From positions 682,001 through 746,000 of the forward strand of contig NZ_RBII01000001.1 in NCBI RefSeq assembly GCF_003634015.1: 64,000 nt of DNA, given 5' to 3'. Both the position numbers and the translations under genes were made by a program. The notes under the pieces are model-generated. The model was given only the letters and a program-made list of their open reading frames with translations, did no database searches and was not told the origin of the DNA. The stretch comes from Litorimonas taeanensis. GTDB taxonomy: Bacteria; Pseudomonadota; Alphaproteobacteria; Caulobacterales; Maricaulaceae. Shown in pieces: positions 3,703 to 64,000 of the stretch (position 1 is the first letter of the stretch; each line of letters opens with the position of its first letter).

Positions 3703-4626
3703 CTAATTAAGGGCAACTTGAGTGAGAACTTGAGAGTAGGAAGGGGCTTTCATCATGTGACTTTCATGCCCCTCATAAATTAGAGCTTTGTGCAATTTGG
3801 GAAGATTGAAACATGGCACAAACATATAAGCGTGATGTTCCACATGATAATTCACCCAATAAGGCGCTAAGAATATACGGGCCAGAAGATTTGCCTGGGT
3901 TGTTCGCGCGTGACGAAGGGGATTACCATTTTCTTCAGTCAGGGCGTGTTCAGCAATATTGCGCAATCGGAGTACCGCCATAAACCATGTCATCAGAGGG
4001 GCGAGCCATAATGCAAAGTAAATCCACCAATGTCCCGCAAGCGTAAAGAGGGTGAGGAGGCCCAAATTTATCCATATGACAGGGTTAGCGCTTATTTTGT
4101 CATTTGCCCCCTCAAAAGCTTCGCTGCCTTCTAAGCTTTGGTTTTTAAATTTTGCCAAGCGTAACCTTAGAAATGTTTGCCCCGTTAAGTCGCGAAAAAA
4201 TTTTCGTCGAAGGCTAGATCTACTGACAGGGAATTTTGCAGAAAGCGGGAGGTCAGGGTCATTGGCTGTCTGGGTATGACGATGATGTTTCAGGTGGTAC
4301 TGACGATAGGTTTTCATATTGCCACCATAAGGGGCCGCCAAAACATATTCGCCGACTAAATCATTGATTTTCCGTGATTTAAACAACACACCATGTGCTG
4401 CTTCATGCATCAAAATTGCCATGCCGTGTTGTCGAGAGCCGACCATCATAAAGGCAAAGACGAAAGTGAAAGCATTGGGAAAAGCTATAAAGAGGCAGAT
4501 AGAGCCGATAATTACGCCCCACACATGACAAGTTAGCCAAGCTCCCCAGAGGTTGGAACGTGCGGCAAGATTCTTTACGGTTGCACGGGGCAATAATTTG
4601 GAATCCATAGGCATCCTAAACTTCAT
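3703..4626 (-). CDS. Membrane fatty acid desaturase family protein
   Basis: An integral membrane di-iron desaturase of 307 residues. The three histidine boxes are visible: HEAAH at residues 74-78, HLKHH at 111-115 and HVEHH near residue 262, with hydrophobic segments around residues 35-65 and 185-215. The family inserts double bonds into acyl chains, or hydroxylates related lipids, using O2 and an electron donor. The ATG at 4626 is the first start; a second Met at residue 5 is possible. The stop lies five bases before the M28 peptidase ATG, so the two are probably co-transcribed. The substrate (fatty acid, sphingolipid or carotenoid) cannot be read from sequence. Confidence 0.88.
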   Translation of the reverse strand: MKFRMPMDSKLLPRATVKNLAARSNLWGAWLTCHVWGVIIGSICLFIAFPNAFTFVFAFMMVGSRQHGMAILMHEAAHGVLFKSRKINDLVGEYVLAAPYGGNMKTYRQYHLKHHRHTQTANDPDLPLSAKFPVSRSSLRRKFFRDLTGQTFLRLRLAKFKNQSLEGSEAFEGANDKISANPVIWINLGLLTLFTLAGHWWIYFALWLAPLMTWFMAVLRLRNIAEHALTEENGNPLRHARTTQANLLARIFLAPYWVNYHVEHHAYMFVPCFNLPKLHKALIYEGHESHMMKAPSYSQVLTQVALN

Positions 4627-4755
4627 TGCGCGCTAAGACCTTGCTGTCAATTCTATGGCCGTTCACAATTTTGACAGTATATACTGATCTGGTTGTTTTG
4701 TTTTTGAATGTAGTATGTCAGAAACAAGCCTCTGGAAACGGAAATGGGAGTAAAC

Positions 4756-5391
4756 ATGACCCACCCTAAAGAAGCTCTGATCGCAGGTTATAAATCTTTT
4801 AGAGCAGGAGATTATGCCGAGCAAAAATCACTTTATGAGACCCTAGGAACGCATGGGCAGAACCCGAAGATTATGATTATAGCGTGTGCGGATTCCCGTG
4901 TTGATCCCACCGATATTTTTAATGCTTACCCGGGTGAAATGTTTGTAGTGCGTAATGTGGCGAACATTGTTCCGCCGCTGGACCCAACGGGTGGATATCA
5001 TGGAACATCGGCGTCAATCGAATTCGCCGTAAAGGCCTTAAAAGTAGAATGCATTGTGGTTATGGGGCATGAAAGCTGTGGCGGCATTCAAGGATGCTTA
5101 CAAGGCATGGGGCAAGATGAGAATGCTGGCTATGTTGGACGTTGGCTATCGTTGATTAACGGTGTGCGAGAAACTGTTGTGGGGCGTAAAGTGCCTGAAG
5201 ACGAAATGCAGTTCGAAATGGAACTTGAAAATGTACGCCAGTCTTTGACGAATTTAATGACCTTTGATTTTGTCCGTGAAGCTGTCGCAAACAAAACATT
5301 AACACTGCAAGGCGCGTATTTCTCTATCATTCGCGCGCGCTTGTTATTGTCAGATGAGGCAGGTGTCTTCTCTGAAGTGGAATCAGTCTAA
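4756..5391 (+). CDS. Beta-class carbonic anhydrase
   Basis: Reversible hydration of CO2 to bicarbonate, a cytoplasmic zinc enzyme. The beta-class ligands are present: CADSR (zinc Cys and the Asp/Arg dyad, residues 44-48) and HESCGG (zinc His105 and Cys108), followed by the conserved NVANIVPP strand. An ATG also exists four codons upstream (4744), but GGGAG at 4746-4750 is spaced correctly for the ATG at 4756, giving 211 residues. It is divergent from the desaturase, and its last four bases overlap the end of the convergent GST gene. A TTGACA hexamer at 4671-4676 could be part of its promoter, but no good -10 follows. Confidence 0.93.
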   Translation: MTHPKEALIAGYKSFRAGDYAEQKSLYETLGTHGQNPKIMIIACADSRVDPTDIFNAYPGEMFVVRNVANIVPPLDPTGGYHGTSASIEFAVKALKVECIVVMGHESCGGIQGCLQGMGQDENAGYVGRWLSLINGVRETVVGRKVPEDEMQFEMELENVRQSLTNLMTFDFVREAVANKTLTLQGAYFSIIRARLLLSDEAGVFSEVESV

Positions 5392-6020
5392 GCTCTGGCA
5401 GAGGGTCTCTCTGAGACTTTTTTGTGCCAATTATGTAATGCCGTTAAGCCCTCATCAGGAGAGGCCTTCACCCATTTAGCAAAATCCATGCCCACCATGG
5501 CCGTTATATCGGCCATGGAGTAGGTGTCACCAGCTACGAAAGCGTTGTTCTGTAACTGTGCATTTAAATCTTCCCAAAATATTTCGATTCTTTGGCGACC
5601 GCGCTCGATTAAAGCTGGGATTTGCTCAATGTTCTTGCGTCCCGTCATTGCTCGGCCTTTCATATTAGGAGATGAGTTTCTTAGAATCTCAGCAATGGCT
5701 GCAAGACCATCAAACTCGCAACGCCAATTCCACTCAGAGATAGCGGCTTTTGAAATTGCATCCGTGCCCAATAGGGGTGGGTTAGGGAATTTTTCTTCTA
5801 GGTAGACGGCTATGGCTATGTTTTCACATATGATTGTTCCGTCTTCTGTGACGAGAGCGGGAACGGCACAGCGAGGGTTAATGGATTGAAATGATGCACC
5901 CATTTGTTCACCTGTGGTGAGGTCGACTTGCTTGCAATCATACGCAATGCCTTTCTCTGCCAAGAATATACGCGCACGACGCGGAGAGGGGGCGGGGTGG
6001 TAATCATACAGTGTAATCAT
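5388..6020 (-). CDS. Glutathione S-transferase family protein
   Basis: A soluble GST of 210 residues: N-terminal thioredoxin-like domain (residues 1-80; MITLYDYHPAPSPRRARIF, cis-Pro in CAVPALV, then the glutathione-binding E-N pair in TIICENIAIAVYLEEKF) followed by an all-helical C-terminal domain (about 90-210). No catalytic Cys is evident; the Ser in APSPRR is the likely thiol-activating residue. It probably conjugates glutathione to electrophiles. Divergent from the pirin gene with 28 bases between starts, and convergent with carbonic anhydrase with a 4-base overlap. The substrate is unknown. Confidence 0.88.
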   Translation of the reverse strand: MITLYDYHPAPSPRRARIFLAEKGIAYDCKQVDLTTGEQMGASFQSINPRCAVPALVTEDGTIICENIAIAVYLEEKFPNPPLLGTDAISKAAISEWNWRCEFDGLAAIAEILRNSSPNMKGRAMTGRKNIEQIPALIERGRQRIEIFWEDLNAQLQNNAFVAGDTYSMADITAMVGMDFAKWVKASPDEGLTALHNWHKKVSERPSARA

Positions 6021-6048
6021 TATCTATCCTAACAAACGAGAGGCACAT

Positions 6049-6918
6049 ATGACATCAGAACGGTCTATTCTCAAATCAATAAATCCGCATGTCAAACATT
6101 TAGGTGGGTTTGATGTCCGGCGATCAATTCCGCAAATTGGTCAGAGATCGATTGGCCCTTGGGTGTTCTTTGACCATTTTGGCCCTGTAGATTTTTTGCC
6201 AGGTGAGGGCATTAATGTTCGTCCGCATCCGCATATAAATTTAGCAACTGTATCCTATTTATTTCAAGGTGAGATATATCACAGAGATAGCCTTGGAAAT
6301 GCTCTAGCAATACATCCTGGCGCAATCAACTTAATGGTTGCAGGTAAGGGTATTGTGCACTCTGAACGTACACGTGAGGCCCTCAAGGAAACGGGCTACA
6401 AACTTCACGGTTTACAATTGTGGCATGCACTACCGAAATCTGTTGAAGAAATTGATCCGGCATTCTTTCATACGTCGGCTGAGGACATACCATGCGGTCA
6501 TAGTAAGGGGGTGGAATATAGAGTCATGATGGGAGAAGCCTATGGCTTGAAATCTCCAGTCAAAACCTATTCTCCTATTCTTTACCTAGAGGCAAAAATG
6601 TCAGCGGGAAGTAGTCTGGAATTACCCTTTGCCGATGAAATGGGTGTGTATGTCGTTAATGGACAAGCTGAAATTGATGGTGAGCCTAGTCCTGTTTATT
6701 CGATGAGCGTATTGTCGGACTCTGCAAAATTGATTAGCGCCAAGTCAGAGACGCGGCTTGCTATTATTGGGGGAGCCGCCCTAGGCAAACGCTATATGGA
6801 ATGGAATTTTATCTCATCCCGAAAGGACCGTATCGAGCAAGCTAAGGCGGATTGGCTACAAGGACGGTTTGATAAAATACCGAATGACGACGAAGAGTTT
6901 ATTCCACTTCCAGAATAA
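6049..6918 (+). CDS. Pirin family protein
   Basis: A two-domain cupin of 289 residues. The N-terminal cupin shows the metal-binding set of pirins (FDHFGP, then VRPHPHINLATVSYLFQGE, and GIVHSE); the C-terminal cupin starts near residue 180. Some pirins have quercetinase activity and others act as redox-sensitive regulators; the role here is not known. The ATG at 6049 follows GAGAGG at 6038-6043. An MDR-family dehydrogenase begins 31 bases downstream on the same strand, suggesting co-transcription. Confidence 0.9.
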   Translation: MTSERSILKSINPHVKHLGGFDVRRSIPQIGQRSIGPWVFFDHFGPVDFLPGEGINVRPHPHINLATVSYLFQGEIYHRDSLGNALAIHPGAINLMVAGKGIVHSERTREALKETGYKLHGLQLWHALPKSVEEIDPAFFHTSAEDIPCGHSKGVEYRVMMGEAYGLKSPVKTYSPILYLEAKMSAGSSLELPFADEMGVYVVNGQAEIDGEPSPVYSMSVLSDSAKLISAKSETRLAIIGGAALGKRYMEWNFISSRKDRIEQAKADWLQGRFDKIPNDDEEFIPLPE

Positions 6919-6949
6919 ATACGTTTAACACGAAAAAGAGAGAAATCTT

Positions 6950-8068
6950 ATGACAACTTATAAACAAATGCTTTCGACCATATCAGATGATGGCACATTA
7001 ACTATGGAGCTTGTCGATAGAGAGATGCCAATACCAAAATCCGATGAGATAATTGTTCGAGTTGATGCGACACCCATTAACCCTTCAGATCATGGTGTTA
7101 TGTTTGGTGCCGCAGATGTGAACGCTGGTTCGACGGTTGATGGTAAATTTGTTGCCCCTGTCTCCAAACAGCTTATGGGGCGCATGAAAGCCCGTGTTGG
7201 ACAAGCTTTGCCTGTCGGCAATGAAGGTGCAGGGGTCGTTATTGAGGCTGGAGACGATAAATACGCACAGTCGTTAATCGGAAAGACCGTCGCTGTAATG
7301 GGCGGCGGGATGTACGGGCAATATCGTTGTATAAAAGCGGTCATGGCTTTGCCTTTAAATGAAGGCTCAACGGCCAAAGATGGGGCGTCTAGTTTTGTGA
7401 ACCCTCTTACAGCTCTGTCTATGGTTGAAACAATGCGTTTAGAAGGTCATGAGGCACTGGTTCATACGGCCGCTGCGTCCAATCTCGGGCAAATGTTAAA
7501 CCGAATTTGCCAAGCTGATGGCGTCGAATTGGTCAACATTGTTCGCCGAGATGAGCAAGCGAATATCTTGAAAGAAATGGGCGCTAAATATGTCGTGAAT
7601 AGTAGTTCAGATAGCTTCATGAAAGACTTAACGGATGCCATTCATGAAACAGGTGCAACTCTGGCATTTGACGCAACAGGTGGCGGCTCTTTAGCATCAG
7701 ATATTTTAACGGCCATGGAGGCCGCAGCAGCACGTACTCCTGGTGCTTATAGTATCTATGGTTCAGTTAAACATAAGCAGGTCTATTTGTATGGCAGTTT
7801 GGATATGAGCCAGACGACTTTGACACGTGGTTACGGTATGGCTTGGGGTGTTGGGGGCTGGTTGTTGCCAAATTTCTTGGCCAAAGTAGGACCAGAAGTC
7901 GGCGTACGTTTACGGAAACGCGTGGCGGATGAACTGACAACGACTTTCGCTAGCCATTACAATCATGAAATTTCATTAGCAGAGGCTCTACAGGCGGATA
8001 TCGTGAAGGCCTATAATGCTAAGAAAACGGGTGAGAAATACCTACTTCTTCCCCAGAAAGATTTGTAA
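6950..8068 (+). CDS. Zinc-type alcohol dehydrogenase-like / quinone oxidoreductase (MDR superfamily)
   Basis: An NAD(P)H-dependent oxidoreductase of 372 residues. The GroES-like N-terminal domain carries DATPINPSDHGVMFG and GNEGAGVVIEAG; the Rossmann domain starts near residue 160 (EALVHTAAASNLGQML, then VNIVRRDEQANILKEMGA). No structural-zinc Cys cluster is present, which favours the zinc-independent quinone-reductase branch of the MDR family. It follows pirin closely. A stable hairpin lies 36 bases past the stop. The true substrate is unknown. Confidence 0.88.
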   Translation: MTTYKQMLSTISDDGTLTMELVDREMPIPKSDEIIVRVDATPINPSDHGVMFGAADVNAGSTVDGKFVAPVSKQLMGRMKARVGQALPVGNEGAGVVIEAGDDKYAQSLIGKTVAVMGGGMYGQYRCIKAVMALPLNEGSTAKDGASSFVNPLTALSMVETMRLEGHEALVHTAAASNLGQMLNRICQADGVELVNIVRRDEQANILKEMGAKYVVNSSSDSFMKDLTDAIHETGATLAFDATGGGSLASDILTAMEAAAARTPGAYSIYGSVKHKQVYLYGSLDMSQTTLTRGYGMAWGVGGWLLPNFLAKVGPEVGVRLRKRVADELTTTFASHYNHEISLAEALQADIVKAYNAKKTGEKYLLLPQKDL

Positions 8069-38263: not shown

Positions 38264-38524
38264 CTAAGGCATACCCCCAACAAAGGCCTCCGTGTCGCCT
38301 AGGAAAGGCTTAGCGACTCTAAACTTGCGACAGCCGCATCCAAATTGCGGACAGATGATGAGTTTAGCTATCTCATCAACGAAGAGGTATTTGTGACAGG
38401 GGTGTCCCACCCATTCATCCACATCATGATACCATTGATAGGAACATTTTAGGCAGGTGATATGCAGCCGCTCATGCGGTTCCATATCTTGTAATTGAGT
38501 TTCACTTTGCCAAGAGAGTGTCAA
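38264..38524 (-). CDS. Small Cys-rich zinc-ribbon protein co-transcribed with the Y-family polymerase
   Basis: An 86-residue protein starting at TTG 38524, which overlaps the polymerase stop (TTGA) and has GGAGGA inside the polymerase coding end. Eight Cys/His-rich positions stand out: ITCLKCSYQWYHD (CxxC), GHPCHKY, and CPQFGCGCRKF, likely one or two zinc sites. No family recognised. Because it shares the LexA-controlled transcript with the lesion-bypass polymerase, it may be a damage-induced nucleic-acid-binding partner (inference). Confidence 0.7.
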   Translation of the reverse strand: MTLSWQSETQLQDMEPHERLHITCLKCSYQWYHDVDEWVGHPCHKYLFVDEIAKLIICPQFGCGCRKFRVAKPFLGDTEAFVGGMP

Positions 38525-39792
38525 AAGAAGTCCTCCGCTGCTGGTATGCGTGTGAAAGAGATTTTACCGCCTGCTAGAGAGCCGGCTTTCATGGGCCATG
38601 GACCAAGGGATATGGCTGTTCTTCCAAACCGTCTGTTTAAGTCGTCCGTTGTACGGGTTAGCACTTCCCATCTTTGCCGAGTGCTGTCGTCATAATGTAA
38701 GAGATCGAGCTGTCGTTCTTGAACATCGTAGAGGTCAACAAGCACAACTCCGATTTGATAAATACGATCACATTCATTGATGACGGATGCTGCGCGCTCC
38801 CATAATTTCATTAAGGCTCCTAATATAGCTTGGTCGTCTGAGACATGGGGTAAGGAGAGGCTATCCCGATAGGTGCGATTATAAAGGGCAGCTGTAAAAT
38901 AAAGTCCAGCCGCCCTAAACCCATCTCTGCGCATCCGCCTGGCGGCTTTGGTGAGTAAGATACGGCTAAAAGCTCTCACATCAGGTACGGCCCGCTCATC
39001 AGGAGGGAGAATACGGGAATGCCCAAACATACCGCGCTTAGAAGGTTGGGCTTTGACATCATAACCGTGAAGAGCATACCAAAGCCGCTCACCATTCACA
39101 TTACCCCAGAGTTTTCTGATTTGCTTGGGCTCGCTCTCCCAGAGCCGTGTCATATTCACGATTCCTGCTGAATACAGCCGGCGTATATTGCCTGGGCCAA
39201 TGCCAGGAATGTCATCAAAAGACAGAGAGAGTAAGGGCCCTGGCAAGTCATGAGGATGTAAGATCGTTAGTCCGTTGGGTTTGTCGAGCTTACAGGCAAT
39301 TTTGGACAACATACGATTGGCACTCATACCAATAGAGCAGGTAATTTGTTCGCCTATGGCCTGCCTTATGCGAGTTTTGATAGCTTGTGCTAAGCTTTCA
39401 GGGTCACGCTGCCCGCCCGCATCAACGATGCAGGTAATCTCATCAATTGATTTTCGCTTATCAATGGGTATGACTCTCTCAATTTCATTCAAGAGCGCGT
39501 CTTGGGCACGGCGGTAAAGGTCTGGCTTTTGGGCAACGAGAATGAGTTCGGGACAACGCTCTTTCGCTTCTTGGGATTTCATGACATTGGTAAGGCCTGC
39601 AGCCTTGGCCTCTTTAGAGCACGCAATCATTGCGCCTGGGTAAATACCGCGATGGTCTGGCTTTGTGGCCCCTTCAAAAGCGACAACCCCTACAGGGCGT
39701 CCGCGCAATAGCGAATTGCATTGCTGTTCGACCGACGCAAAGAACCCGTCAAAGTCCAGATAGAGGCTTTCAATGTTAGCAACACTTCTCAT
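38521..39792 (-). CDS. Y-family DNA polymerase (DinB/Pol IV-like, lesion bypass)
   Basis: A 423-residue translesion polymerase. Palm motifs: YLDFDGFFASVEQQ (metal Asp), RKSIDEITC (SxDE), SIGMSANRMLSKIACKLDKP. The finger region and helix-hairpin-helix (FDDIPGIGPGNIRRLYSAGI) follow, with the little-finger domain after residue 230. No clear beta-clamp QLxLF end is visible. ATG at 39792 lies inside a perfect inverted repeat, and a LexA box is 29 bases upstream, so it should be SOS-induced. dinB is the likely orthologue but the long C-terminal region leaves umuC-like naming open. Confidence 0.9.
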   Translation of the reverse strand: MRSVANIESLYLDFDGFFASVEQQCNSLLRGRPVGVVAFEGATKPDHRGIYPGAMIACSKEAKAAGLTNVMKSQEAKERCPELILVAQKPDLYRRAQDALLNEIERVIPIDKRKSIDEITCIVDAGGQRDPESLAQAIKTRIRQAIGEQITCSIGMSANRMLSKIACKLDKPNGLTILHPHDLPGPLLSLSFDDIPGIGPGNIRRLYSAGIVNMTRLWESEPKQIRKLWGNVNGERLWYALHGYDVKAQPSKRGMFGHSRILPPDERAVPDVRAFSRILLTKAARRMRRDGFRAAGLYFTAALYNRTYRDSLSLPHVSDDQAILGALMKLWERAASVINECDRIYQIGVVLVDLYDVQERQLDLLHYDDSTRQRWEVLTRTTDDLNRRFGRTAISLGPWPMKAGSLAGGKISFTRIPAAEDFF

Positions 39793-39820: not shown

Positions 39821-39835
39821 GAACATTGCAAGAAC
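39821..39835 (-). promoter_or_regulatory. LexA (SOS) box upstream of the Y-family polymerase
   Basis: On the minus strand this reads GTTCTTGCAATGTTC, a perfect match to GTTC-N7-GTTC, the LexA site of alphaproteobacteria. It lies 29-43 bases before the ATG at 39792. TTGCAAT is repeated 18 bases apart here (39807-39813 and 39825-39831 on the plus strand as ATTGCAA). Confidence 0.82.
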
Positions 39836-59966: not shown

Positions 59967-62189
59967 TCACTCGGTTTGAATGTCTATACGCTTATCATTC
60001 ACCATGTTTAATAATTCGGCGGCTGCCTTGGCGTCACAAAGCGCTCTATGATGTGCCTCTAAATCTATCTGAAATTCCAAGCAAAGGTTTTTAAGGCTGT
60101 AGGAAGGATAGCCAGGGTAAAGCTTTCTCATTGATGCGCAGGTGCAAATTTTGGGGTGTTTAAAATTACGATCTATCATCTGAAATTCAGATCTTATGAA
60201 GCCGTAGTCAAAGTTTACATTATGAGCCGCAAAAATTGCGTCCCCCATGAATTCCGTAAAACTATCTGCGATTTCGGCAAAGATAGGGGCGTCAGCCACC
60301 ATATTTTCGTCGATGCCGGTAATTCGTGTTATGTTTGATGGAATAGAACGTTGAGGATTAATAAGGCTTGACCACTCGCCAATAATTTCGCCATTTTGAA
60401 GTTTAACGGCCCCAATTTCGGTGACGCGATGTAGGCCTGGGCGGCCTCCCGTTGTTTCTACATCAACCACGACATAAACTTGGTCAGGATCAATATGCCA
60501 TTCAACACGAATGATATTAGCCGTAAATCCAGCGGCCTGTAATTGCCGCAACCGTGTCAATTGATTACGGCGCAATACATCCCCTTTGGCTTTGACTTCA
60601 ACAAATCGAGCTTCTCCGTGTTCAATCAGCATTAGATCTGGGAAACCATCTTTCGTTCTCATGAAATTCTGTGCCATGTGCCGTAACATTGAGACAAGCG
60701 CTGCTTTAGGAGCATGCCGCACCAATAGTTTGATACGCTCCACCGACTTGGGATCCCAATTAAAAACACCGTTTTTGGTGTTATGATGCTTTGTGATTGT
60801 TTTCAGCAAAGGCAACAGCGTTGACCCAGTTAAAGCCAAATCGCTTAGTTTACTTTCGATTGACTTCTTATGGTGTTGATAAAAACTATTTTTTTTGAGG
60901 CTTAAGGGTAAAGACCAAGCTTTTGGTGCTTCATCGGCATATATTTCATCCCAAAATAGAAGCCCGAAGAGGCTCAGCCATAACTGATTTTCTGTTCTAT
61001 ATGCTGCGAGGCCTTTTTTCTTGTAGTAATTTACCACGGCGCGCTCTGGCGCATGTCGGAATCCTTCATCCAAAAATATAGTATGACTTTCGCGCAATAA
61101 ATCCGTGACTTCGCTCGTGCGTTTCTTTTTAAATTTGCGAGCGTAAAAGTCATTCGCGAACGTATGCTCGTCATCGCTTTCCGGATTTTCAATCATCTCC
61201 TCAAGACGTTTTTGTACCCAATTCCGATCATCGTTTTCATTTCGGCGGTATCGAATGCGAACAACGCGTTCGTTGCAATTATCGCTATCACTCTGGGCGT
61301 AAAGGCCAAGTGCGGCCTCAATATTGCCTTTACGTTCAGATAGTCCTCCTAATTTTTGTAAAAGCTTACCGCGTTTAATTTTTGTTAGTTCATCCACAGG
61401 CCTAGGCCATAACTCCACTGTATCAATTAGGGTCTGTATCGAAGCTTGATCGTTGGCGCCTAAGCTAAATAAAGCTTTGGCATAAAAATAGGCGCATTTA
61501 GCTTGACTGTAATTGGTAAAGGCTAATTTGGGCGATACATTGCGGGTAGGGCGGACTACACCTAAAACGCCTAATGTTTTGGCCTGCAAACTGTTTTCAA
61601 TCCGTCCAAAGTACAGGAAAAGAAGGTACTGATAAGCCTTAAGTCTGGATTGCACCACAAAGCTATCGGAAATAAGCACGTCATCAAAATCTATGTGTTC
61701 TAAGCAAATGTCTATCAGTTTTGATTTCTTCCAAGACCGCCTGTATAATGTTTCACACAGACGCTCTTCAATCAATTGAACTAAATCTGGCTTTGTCATC
61801 GACAATAGAAAGTCTTTGAAATCAGAGCTCTCAACAGGTTTGACAAAGTTGTTTTGTAAGAGCGTGTCAAACTGTTCTGGGATGTTTTTGATTTCAACAT
61901 ACCGAAGATGGTACATATTGAAAATCTTTCCCTTTCGCCCAGCTATCCGGGCGTAGGTGCACTGCGCTTCAAAGGGCAGGGCATCGAAATCCTGTATGAA
62001 ACGCGTGTGTTCAGGTCCCATTAAATCTGTATATCGGGTACTAACATAAGTAAGCATGTCACAAAAATTTCTATGATAATAAAATTGGGGTAAATCTTTA
62101 ACCGACCAAGCTTGGCCCTTAGCAGCGCGTCGAAAGCGTCTTTGCTCGGCTTTGATGTAATTTTGAGCTTTCACGCTTAAACAACTCAC
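59967..62189 (-). CDS. FAN1-like VRR-NUC nuclease fused to a DnaQ-type 3'-5' exonuclease
   Basis: A 740-residue two-nuclease fusion. The first 570 residues look like a bacterial FAN1: long helical N-terminal part with TPR-like repeats, then ENQLWLSLFGLLFWDEIY (Glu400), GVFNWDP, and the VRR-NUC core GFPDLMLI (Asp518) and FVEVKAKGD (Glu531, Lys533). Residues 571-740 form a DEDDh exonuclease: VVDVETTGG (Asp576, Glu578), NFDYGF (Asp661), HHRALCDA (His714, Asp719). FAN1 enzymes unhook DNA interstrand crosslinks with 5' flap and exonuclease activity; a linked 3'-5' exonuclease would widen this. GTG start at 62189, no clear ribosome site. A LexA box lies 47 bases upstream. Confidence 0.85.
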   Translation of the reverse strand: MSCLSVKAQNYIKAEQRRFRRAAKGQAWSVKDLPQFYYHRNFCDMLTYVSTRYTDLMGPEHTRFIQDFDALPFEAQCTYARIAGRKGKIFNMYHLRYVEIKNIPEQFDTLLQNNFVKPVESSDFKDFLLSMTKPDLVQLIEERLCETLYRRSWKKSKLIDICLEHIDFDDVLISDSFVVQSRLKAYQYLLFLYFGRIENSLQAKTLGVLGVVRPTRNVSPKLAFTNYSQAKCAYFYAKALFSLGANDQASIQTLIDTVELWPRPVDELTKIKRGKLLQKLGGLSERKGNIEAALGLYAQSDSDNCNERVVRIRYRRNENDDRNWVQKRLEEMIENPESDDEHTFANDFYARKFKKKRTSEVTDLLRESHTIFLDEGFRHAPERAVVNYYKKKGLAAYRTENQLWLSLFGLLFWDEIYADEAPKAWSLPLSLKKNSFYQHHKKSIESKLSDLALTGSTLLPLLKTITKHHNTKNGVFNWDPKSVERIKLLVRHAPKAALVSMLRHMAQNFMRTKDGFPDLMLIEHGEARFVEVKAKGDVLRRNQLTRLRQLQAAGFTANIIRVEWHIDPDQVYVVVDVETTGGRPGLHRVTEIGAVKLQNGEIIGEWSSLINPQRSIPSNITRITGIDENMVADAPIFAEIADSFTEFMGDAIFAAHNVNFDYGFIRSEFQMIDRNFKHPKICTCASMRKLYPGYPSYSLKNLCLEFQIDLEAHHRALCDAKAAAELLNMVNDKRIDIQTE

Positions 62190-62235: not shown

Positions 62236-62250
62236 GAACATATAAAGAAC
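62236..62250 (-). promoter_or_regulatory. LexA (SOS) box upstream of the FAN1-DnaQ fusion
   Basis: The plus strand GAACATATAAAGAAC is GAAC-N7-GAAC; on the minus strand it is GTTC-N7-GTTC, the alphaproteobacterial LexA consensus. It lies 47-61 bases before the GTG start. The rest of 62190-62425 shows no gene. Confidence 0.78.
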
Positions 62251-63426: not shown

Positions 63427-64000
63427 ATGTTGTCACCCCGTCACTCTTCTGACCCATCATCTTACGTTCCACCGGATTTCGTCAAACGAAATGGACGGAA
63501 AATGGTCACTGCTTATTCTGAGTTTTTTGCACTGAACATCAATGCGAATACTAATGATGCATATGCCAACGGATTAAAATTATTTTTTGAACATTGTGAA
63601 AAAATAGGCATTTCTGATGTGCTTGATATTGAGCCAATTCACGTACAAGATTTCAATGTTACAATATTGGGTGCAGGTTACGGCACTGCAAGCTTGAGAC
63701 AATATTTATCAGCCATCAGAATGTTTTTTGATAGCTGTGTTGTCCGAGGTGTTTTGAGTGTGAACCCTGCTAAGGCTGTAAAACTACCGCGGTCAAGCAC
63801 AGGCACGGGTAAAACACCCGTAATCGTATCTGATCAGGTACGGCAAATTTTAGACTCAATTCCCCGTATGCGAGAAATCGACTTGCGCGATCGCGCTTTA
63901 ATCGGCCTTATGGTGTATTCATTTTTTCGTATTTCGGCGGCTCTTTCGTTGAAGGTACGTGATTATGAACTCCGCGGCAATCAGAGATGGCTAGTTGGCG
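63427..64000 (+). CDS. Tyrosine recombinase/integrase (partial, C-terminus beyond right edge)
   Basis: 191 codons are visible from the ATG at 63427 and the frame is still open at the edge. An N-terminal SAM-like DNA-binding domain covers about residues 25-120 (VTAYSEFFALNINANTNDAY; IEPIHVQDFNVTILGAGYG), followed by NPAKAVKLPRSS and the start of the catalytic domain with LRDRALIGLMVYSFFRISAA (active-site Arg in FFRIS). The His, second Arg and Tyr lie outside the window. It resembles phage- or plasmid-type integrases more than XerC/XerD. It may mark the left end of a mobile element. Confidence 0.85.
   Translation, partial: MLSPRHSSDPSSYVPPDFVKRNGRKMVTAYSEFFALNINANTNDAYANGLKLFFEHCEKIGISDVLDIEPIHVQDFNVTILGAGYGTASLRQYLSAIRMFFDSCVVRGVLSVNPAKAVKLPRSSTGTGKTPVIVSDQVRQILDSIPRMREIDLRDRALIGLMVYSFFRISAALSLKVRDYELRGNQRWLVG

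What the first reader, a model, noticed from the sequence alone, without database searches (positions are those of the whole stretch)
59967..62189. FAN1-like crosslink-repair nuclease fused to a DEDDh exonuclease
The sequence shows two complete nuclease active sites in one 740-residue chain: a PD-(D/E)xK VRR-NUC site (Glu400, Asp518, Glu531, Lys533) and a DnaQ-type DEDDh site (Asp576, Glu578, Asp661, His714, Asp719). Known FAN1 proteins (human, Pseudomonas) have no exonuclease partner. A fusion would join 5'-flap/5'-3' activity to a 3'-5' exonuclease, a plausible one-protein unhooking and gap-processing machine. I am not aware of a characterised example.
Basis: partly seen in the sequence, partly recalled or inferred. 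Interest (0 to 1): 0.72.

Follow-up and report, generated by a model that had tools for sequence, protein, structure and literature searches.

The report
SOS-controlled FAN1 nuclease fused to exonuclease
Some bacteria carry a DNA-crosslink-repair-type nuclease (FAN1) joined in one protein to a second DNA-trimming enzyme and apparently switched on by the DNA-damage alarm, which suggests a one-protein tool for removing DNA crosslinks.

Summary
On the minus strand (59967-62189), one 740-residue chain carries a complete FAN1 (FAN1_HTH, helical middle, VRR-NUC) and, after a linker of a few residues, a complete DEDDh exonuclease. It is not a one-off: it belongs to a FAN1-DEDDh family seen in records titled Alphaproteobacteria, Gammaproteobacteria and Verrucomicrobiales. 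Fused and unfused FAN1s in my tree fall on two sides of one branch. In 76 of 76 aligned proteins the spacing between the nucleases is the same; eight catalytic residues never vary, the ninth varies once. Added here: an alphaproteobacterial LexA box (GTTC-N7-GTTC) lies 46 nt before the start codon, and 49 of 55 alphaproteobacterial loci have such a box at the gene or at a Y-family polymerase gene overlapping it. Y-family polymerases lie beside the gene in 11 of 80 loci. DEDDh exonucleases (MrfB, exo-DinG) act in mitomycin or crosslink tolerance in Gram-positive bacteria. Best reading: an SOS-induced FAN1 incises beside a crosslink while the attached exonuclease trims a 3' end before translesion synthesis. 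No activity was tested.

The parts
59967..62189 (-). FAN1-DEDDh fusion gene, 740 aa, GTG start at 62189
   Evidence: relatives align along the whole length
61839..62084 (-). FAN1_HTH domain (residues 36-117)
   Evidence: Pfam PF21315, 68 bits, cut-off 27
61008..61838 (-). Helical middle region equivalent to PaFAN1's middle part (residues 118-394)
   Evidence: phmmer alignment to 4r89; helices in the model
60498..60806 (-). VRR_NUC nuclease domain (residues 462-564); active site E400, D518, E531, K533
   Evidence: Pfam PF08774, 53.6 bits; four residues invariant in 76 of 76
60477..60491 (-). Junction D-P-x-Q-x (residues 567-571), same length in all aligned relatives
   Evidence: 13 residues from position 564 to 576 in 76 of 76 sequences; strands 556-565 and 571-579 nearly abut in the model
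60009..60473 (-). DEDDh exonuclease domain (residues 573-727); D576, E578, D661, H714, D719
   Evidence: Pfam RNase_T, 126 bits; Foldseek match to SaDinG exonuclease, rmsd 1.4; residues conserved
62236..62250 (-). LexA box GTTCTTTATATGTTC, 46 nt between box and start codon
   Evidence: listed there as distance 47; the identical 15-mer precedes uvrA in the same genome

Best explanation
This is a FAN1 structure-specific nuclease with a DEDDh (expected 3'-5') exonuclease fixed to the end of its VRR-NUC domain, made as one enzyme when LexA is cleaved in the SOS response. Most likely it repairs replication-blocking damage, interstrand crosslinks first. The FAN1 part binds a 5' flap or gapped branch at the lesion and incises the flap strand in steps past the crosslink. 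The DEDDh domain, held at a fixed short distance, trims a 3' end at the same junction: the 3' end made by incision, or a stalled or mismatched primer end. That leaves a gap whose 3' terminus a Y-family polymerase can extend opposite the unhooked remnant. Shown here: domains, intact active sites, constant junction, one fused group in the tree, LexA boxes, neighbouring polymerase genes in some lineages. Inferred: substrate, polarity, order of steps, crosslinks as the main target.
For: Whole-length match to PaFAN1 by sequence and fold (5y7q, E 1e-22). The best-ranked DEDDh match by fold is SaDinG (8zef, rmsd 1.4, 34% identity), whose exonuclease is needed for mitomycin C and formaldehyde resistance (PMC12345164, passages); MrfB is a DEDDh 3'-5' exonuclease for mitomycin C tolerance (PMC11194089, passages). 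Both active sites are kept in 76 of 76 proteins except one E578G, with constant junction length. Fused and unfused FAN1 lie on two sides of one branch, SH-aLRT 100 (81 and 37 rows). LexA box from 250 nt upstream to 20 nt inside the called gene in 45 of 55 usable alphaproteobacterial loci (window not counted), plus 4 where it lies at a Y-family polymerase gene overlapping FAN1 by 4 nt: 49 of 55. Permuted controls 0 and 2 of 55; spacings N6 and N8 2 and 0 of 55. The window genome has lexA with a box 36 nt before its start, recA with two, uvrA with the identical box, three Y-family polymerase genes and a YifB-family gene. A Y-family polymerase or a piece of one lies directly beside the gene (10 loci) or one small ORF away (L139): 11 of 80 loci. 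SRAP adjoins it in 4 of 80 loci and on a Bradyrhizobium plasmid. PaFAN1's gene PA1865 is induced by UV-C and ciprofloxacin (PMC12796719, passage).
Against: No nuclease activity, substrate or phenotype was tested. MrfB's authors think MrfAB acts on mitomycin monoadducts or intrastrand crosslinks rather than interstrand ones, so the DEDDh precedent does not point to interstrand crosslinks alone. The gene is patchy: 4 of 17 other genomes of the genus lack it (two of them under 80% complete), as do 35 of 42 of the family outside the genus and 40 of 40 of the order outside the family. None of 17 gammaproteobacterial or 5 usable Verrucomicrobiota loci has GTTC-N7-GTTC or CTGT-N8-ACAG, so SOS control is supported only for Alphaproteobacteria. 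The motif is not enriched genome-wide (64 sites against 106 for the reversed pattern), and several box-bearing genes show no evident link to repair; the argument rests on placement in relatives. PA1865 is reported as repressed by hydrogen peroxide. Exonuclease lesions with an intact FAN1 part exist (L060/L146 E578G; L122 frame lost; L125 stop), though draft errors are possible. Polymerase linkage is in a minority of loci, and the window's own direct neighbours are not repair genes by their translations.
Confidence: 0.6

Rival explanations
1. General SOS fork or recombination nuclease: the FAN1 part removes 5' flaps at stalled forks or gaps and the DEDDh domain proofreads or resects 3' ends for error-prone polymerases; interstrand crosslinks are a minor substrate.
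For: A Y-family polymerase gene lies beside the fusion in 11 of 80 loci and overlaps it in 4 Hellea loci. The DEDDh domain also resembles PolC and DnaQ proofreading domains. MrfAB is thought to act on monoadducts or intrastrand crosslinks. SRAP neighbours point to abasic-site or fork damage (recalled).
Against: Exo-DinG deletion gives sensitivity to crosslinkers specifically, and PaFAN1 is credited with crosslink unhooking (stated in PMC12796719, passage; primary papers not read).
Confidence: 0.25
2. The DEDDh domain is mainly structural or DNA-binding and adds no catalytic step in vivo; the enzyme works as an ordinary FAN1.
For: Three relatives have a damaged exonuclease part with an intact FAN1 part. 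Most FAN1-bearing genomes of the phylum sample lack the domain (44 of 55: 37 loci read, 7 judged by open-frame length).
Against: D576, D661, H714 and D719 are invariant in 76 of 76 and E578 in 75 of 76, which a scaffold would not need.
Confidence: 0.08
3. A mobile-element-borne conflict nuclease rather than a cellular repair enzyme.
For: Present on a conjugative Bradyrhizobium plasmid and other large replicons, with patchy distribution. VRR-NUC domains also occur in interbacterial toxins (PMC9635880, passages).
Against: No tblastn match to its FAN1 part in 50,697 phage records at E 1e-5. It has the repair-type FAN1 architecture, LexA boxes like those of recA and uvrA, and a conserved neighbourhood in its own group.
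Confidence: 0.04

Closest known systems
PaFAN1 (Pseudomonas aeruginosa PA1865; PDB 4r89, 5y7g) and human FAN1
   Same: HTH domain, helical middle and VRR-NUC with E/D/E-x-K site; PaFAN1 aligned over residues 34-567
   Different: They end where VRR-NUC ends; no DEDDh domain. 22-23% identity to PaFAN1 in the structural alignments. Fused FAN1s are one group in my tree
Staphylococcus aureus DinG (DEDDh + SF2 helicase)
   Same: DEDDh exonuclease fused to another DNA enzyme, needed for crosslinker resistance (PMC12345164, passages); best-ranked DEDDh match by fold
   Different: Partner is a helicase, not a structure-specific endonuclease; DEDDh is N-terminal
Bacillus subtilis MrfB (with helicase MrfA)
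   Same: DEDDh 3'-5' DNA exonuclease for mitomycin C damage (PMC11194089, passages)
   Different: Separate protein working with a helicase; thought to act on monoadducts or intrastrand crosslinks; no VRR-NUC mentioned in the passages seen
Exonuclease domain of PolC / DnaQ (2p1j, 1j53)
   Same: DEDDh fold and motif; 2p1j is the best sequence match in PDB (E 6.6e-27)
   Different: Belongs to replicative polymerases; not attached to a repair nuclease
PRK07883-type DEDD exonuclease proteins (NCBIfam NF005906)
   Same: Best NCBIfam match, exonuclease region only (167 bits, cut-off 495)
   Different: The rest of the chain does not match; their partner domain (GIY-YIG type) is recalled, not tested

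Membership tests
FAN1 (KIAA1018-type VRR-NUC) family | FAN1-specific N-terminal HTH domain | tested here: met
   PF21315, 68 bits, cut-off 27
FAN1 (KIAA1018-type VRR-NUC) family | VRR-NUC domain with E...D...E-x-K catalytic set | tested here: met
   PF08774; E400, D518, E531, K533 invariant in 76 of 76
FAN1 (KIAA1018-type VRR-NUC) family | Whole-length homology and fold shared with PaFAN1 / human FAN1 | tested here: met
FAN1 (KIAA1018-type VRR-NUC) family | Two-helix insertion in VRR-NUC that keeps the enzyme monomeric (PMC4103454, passages) | not tested
   not mapped onto the model
FAN1 (KIAA1018-type VRR-NUC) family | 5'-flap endonuclease and crosslink unhooking | not testable with these tools
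   needs purified protein
DEDDh (DnaQ-like) exonucleases | Exonuclease motifs with D, E, D, H, D | tested here: met
   RNase_T 126 bits; residues at 576, 578, 661, 714, 719
DEDDh (DnaQ-like) exonucleases | Metal-dependent 3'-5' exonuclease activity | not testable with these tools
   inferred from fold and motif only
Alphaproteobacterial LexA (SOS) regulon | GTTC-N7-GTTC box in the promoter | tested here: met
   62236-62250; 49 of 55 alphaproteobacterial relatives directly or through an overlapping upstream gene
Alphaproteobacterial LexA (SOS) regulon | LexA binding and damage induction | not testable with these tools
   lexA and its own box are present; induction not measurable here

The most novel reading that the evidence does not exclude
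A dedicated SOS-induced bacterial crosslink-repair module: a FAN1-DEDDh enzyme that incises from the 5' side and trims from the 3' side at one junction, paired by gene overlap or by co-regulation with its own Y-family polymerase (and in Bradyrhizobium with SRAP). It would be a compact bacterial counterpart of the unhook, trim and bypass steps of the eukaryotic Fanconi pathway.
Probability: 0.4. Interest if true: 0.78.

Novelty: new variant of a known kind. Interest (0 to 1): 0.6.

Why it matters
FAN1 is a human disease gene (crosslink repair, kidney disease, Huntington's modifier; abstracts in the listing), and how its incision product is finished is, as I recall, open. Here evolution welded a second nuclease of opposite expected polarity to FAN1 at a fixed distance, put it under a LexA box, and in Hellea overlapped its gene with a translesion polymerase gene. 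That gives a testable single-chain model for coupling unhooking, end trimming and bypass. With exo-DinG and MrfB it suggests that a DEDDh exonuclease is a recurrent partner in bacterial repair of crosslinker damage, attached to different first-step enzymes in different lineages.

Tried and rejected
Chance ORF or frame artefact: rejected; three over-threshold Pfam domains and 19 full-length relatives in related genomes.

Assembly chimera of two genes: rejected; the same junction with the same length occurs in 76 of 76 aligned proteins, from many assemblies.

Degenerate exonuclease: rejected for this gene; possible in L060 (the same place as L146), L122 and L125.

Fusion unique to this genome or genus: rejected.

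Phage origin: no match to the FAN1 part in 50,697 phage records.

An E. coli-type box for gammaproteobacterial fused genes: none of 17. Unfused FAN1 genes: 5 of 37 have CTGT-N8-ACAG, against 0 of 37 for each of three permuted palindromes, so damage control of FAN1 may be older than the fusion.

Genome-wide enrichment of GTTC-N7-GTTC: not seen (64 against 106 for the reversed pattern). The regions around 50 of the 64 sites were read for downstream genes, 14 were not; some genes listed there (for example L169, L187, L198, L203) show no evident link to repair by their translations.

Y-family polymerase as the commonest neighbour of all: not borne out. Before the Pfam count I left out the block of neighbours that the window's own group shares. 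A polyprenyl-synthase-like gene (cluster 2, judged from its translation) is directly beside the fusion in 14 loci and cluster 11 in 7. In what remained, the Y-family polymerase domain came first with 8 of 118, next ABC_tran and AAA_21 with 7 each.

The first genome-contig scan with the single protein found no relative (31 stretches, none confirmed); a FAN1-part alignment was used for the second. A tRNA scan had no bearing.

One search was a naive extraction that ignored strand for some loci; superseded. Neighbour genes were called by a crude longest-ORF script that missed SRAP in two loci (L122, L127); found later by phmmer.
Full report
WHAT IS THERE. The longest frame at 59967-62189 is on the minus strand: 740 codons, GTG start at 62189. 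Pfam finds FAN1_HTH (36-117), VRR_NUC (462-564) and RNase_T (573-727), all above the curated cut-offs. Against PDB sequences, PaFAN1 aligns over residues 34-567, and the remainder matches DEDDh exonucleases, best the PolC exonuclease domain 2p1j and S. aureus DinG. No NCBIfam model covers the whole chain; among the 25 of 30 rows shown, only the DnaQ subfamily-domain model TIGR00573 (124.6 bits, cut-off 71.5) passes its cut-off.

STRUCTURE. AlphaFold2 with 76 aligned proteins gives mean pLDDT 92.9 and pTM 0.82. The first 23 Foldseek matches in PDB are PaFAN1 and human FAN1 chains (5y7q E 1e-22); the next are SaDinG exonuclease (8zef, rmsd 1.4, 34% identity), the DnaQ epsilon subunit and PolC. 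The last VRR-NUC strand (556-565) runs almost directly into the first DEDDh strand (571-579). From position 564 to 576 all 76 proteins have exactly 13 residues, and Q570 and Y572 are invariant. I read this as a rigid coupling that holds the two sites at a fixed geometry (inference; no inter-domain error map was available).

DISTRIBUTION. Of 17 other genomes of the genus, 13 have the full-length fusion; of 42 in other genera of the family, 6 do and one more has a piece at a contig end; of 40 in other families of the order, none. All 19 full-length loci carry both parts. In an even sample of the class, 4 of 385 genomes (own included) have a FAN1_HTH match, and all 4 are fused. In an even sample of the phylum, 55 of 398 do: own, 4 of the same class and 6 of one family of another class are fused (one of these six, G491, with a broken frame), and 44 are not; of the 44, 37 loci were read and lack the exonuclease, while 7 were judged only by open frames of 539-581 aa. 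A scan of the GTDB-220 species genomes gave 281 relatives, of which the best 80 were kept. 79 of 80 show the exonuclease following FAN1; the exception (L151) ends at the contig edge. Of the 79, one is cut by a contig end (L156), one loses the frame (L122) and one has a stop (L125) inside the exonuclease. Record titles name Hellea, Litorimonas, Algimonas, Robiginitomaculum, Asticcacaulis, Bradyrhizobium, Mesorhizobium, Rhodomicrobium, Denitrobaculum, Neomegalonema, Woeseiaceae and Verrucomicrobiales. This scan used patterns from fused FAN1s and cannot count unfused ones. Pseudoalteromonas records carry it too. In the tree of FAN1 parts (118 rows), fused (81) and unfused (37) are the two sides of one branch, SH-aLRT 100 (quick search, no bootstrap, midpoint root for drawing only, long end branches in L061, L063 and L074-L076), so a single origin followed by joint inheritance is the simplest reading but is not proved.

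CONSERVATION OF BOTH SITES. In 76 proteins E400, D518, E531, K533, D576, D661, H714 and D719 never vary; E578 is Gly once. Both nucleases are therefore probably used.

SOS CONTROL. [quoted passage not shown] One such site in 64 kb proves little (3 found, 1.57 expected, 16 of 100 shuffles reach 3), so I tested placement across relatives. Of 80 named loci I assigned 57 to Alphaproteobacteria by title; 55 had enough upstream sequence. 45 of 55 have the exact box between 250 nt upstream and 20 nt inside the called gene. Four more (L080, L083, L089, L134) have a Y-family polymerase gene overlapping FAN1 by 4 nt, with the box just before that polymerase gene. Six lack it (L078, L084, L095, L124, L125, L156). 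Permuted controls hit 0 and 2 of 55; spacings of 6 and 8 hit 2 and 0. Many loci are close relatives, so these are not independent events, but the spacers differ between lineages. In the window genome the same motif precedes lexA (36 nt), recA (two boxes), uvrA (the identical 15-mer), three Y-family polymerase genes (in one, L192, the box overlaps the called start) and a YifB-family gene; other motif-bearing genes there have no evident link to repair. Genome-wide the motif is not enriched (64 against 106 reversed). Fused genes of Gammaproteobacteria (0 of 17) and Verrucomicrobiota (0 of 5) have neither GTTC-N7-GTTC nor CTGT-N8-ACAG. Unfused FAN1s have the E. coli-type box in 5 of 37, against 0 of 37 for three controls, and PA1865 (PaFAN1) is reported induced by UV-C and ciprofloxacin but repressed by hydrogen peroxide (PMC12796719, passage).

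NEIGHBOURS. A Y-family polymerase gene or piece lies beside the fused gene in 11 of 80 loci: four Hellea loci with overlapping genes, and seven of Bradyrhizobium or Mesorhizobium type (L131, L132, L138, L139, L140, L142, L154) in several orientations, in L139 with one small ORF between. In a Pfam scan of 118 neighbours, after leaving out the block shared by the window's own group, this domain was the most frequent (8 members; ABC_tran and AAA_21 had 7 each). Counting that block, a polyprenyl-synthase-like gene is the commonest neighbour (14 loci, all of the window's own group), which reflects shared descent. The window genome's homologue of the Hellea polymerase (48% identity over 416 residues) lies on another contig (C2) with its own LexA box: unlinked but apparently co-regulated. 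SRAP (SOS-response-associated peptidase) genes adjoin the fusion in four loci (L122, L127, L128, L131) and on the conjugative plasmid p172_1 of Bradyrhizobium sp. 172, where a box lies between the two genes.

MECHANISM. FAN1 enzymes cut 5' flaps a few nucleotides past the branch and have 5'-3' exonuclease activity (PMC4103454 and PMC9635880, passages). DEDDh enzymes of the closest repair type digest 3'-5' and are needed for mitomycin or crosslinker tolerance (MrfB, PMC11194089; SaDinG, PMC12345164; passages of both); MrfAB is thought to act on monoadducts or intrastrand crosslinks, SaDinG on crosslinker damage more widely. The simplest joint model is incision around the lesion by FAN1, trimming of a 3' end by DEDDh at the same junction, then bypass by a Y-family polymerase. 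The order and the substrate are inferred.

NOVELTY. Of ten searches of the open PMC library, seven were aimed at the fusion and three at context. None of the listed titles and abstract openings describes a FAN1-DEDDh fusion; two strict queries found zero papers, but several looser listings were capped. Subscription papers and domain-architecture databases were not searched, and I expect such databases already list the combination. Public records that annotate it call it 'exonuclease domain-containing protein'. I file it as a member of FAN1 with a new architecture: a new variant of a known kind.

Noticed in passing
window 38521-39792 (-), box 39821-39835: A Y-family polymerase gene in the window with a LexA box just upstream (distance 29), 36% identical to the polymerase that overlaps the fused gene in Hellea. 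Window coordinates derived from locus L175.
   Followed up: partly
L192 (G000:C2 about 379800): Homologue of the Hellea FAN1-adjacent Y-family polymerase, unlinked here but with its own LexA box at the start of the gene.
   Followed up: partly
L210 (plasmid p172_1 of Bradyrhizobium sp. 172), 4191-7172: SRAP gene directly followed by the FAN1-DEDDh gene on a conjugative plasmid, with a LexA box between them and a GTPase-associated system protein annotated nearby.
   Followed up: partly
L122, L125, L060 (same place as L146), L066: Relatives with a damaged exonuclease part (L122 frame lost, L125 stop, L060 E578G) or a broken N-terminal frame (L066); decay or draft errors.
   Followed up: no
L044, L046, L049, L051, L057: Unfused FAN1 genes with an E. 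coli-type LexA box near the start, hinting at SOS control of ordinary bacterial FAN1.
   Followed up: partly
window 63427-63999 (+, open at the window end): Start of a gene that looks like a tyrosine recombinase, close to the fused gene; judged from its translation only.
   Followed up: no
L188 (G000:C1 about 1116613): A cytosine methyltransferase-type gene (dcm model, 257 bits) with a LexA-type box just upstream (distance 33) in the window genome.
   Followed up: no
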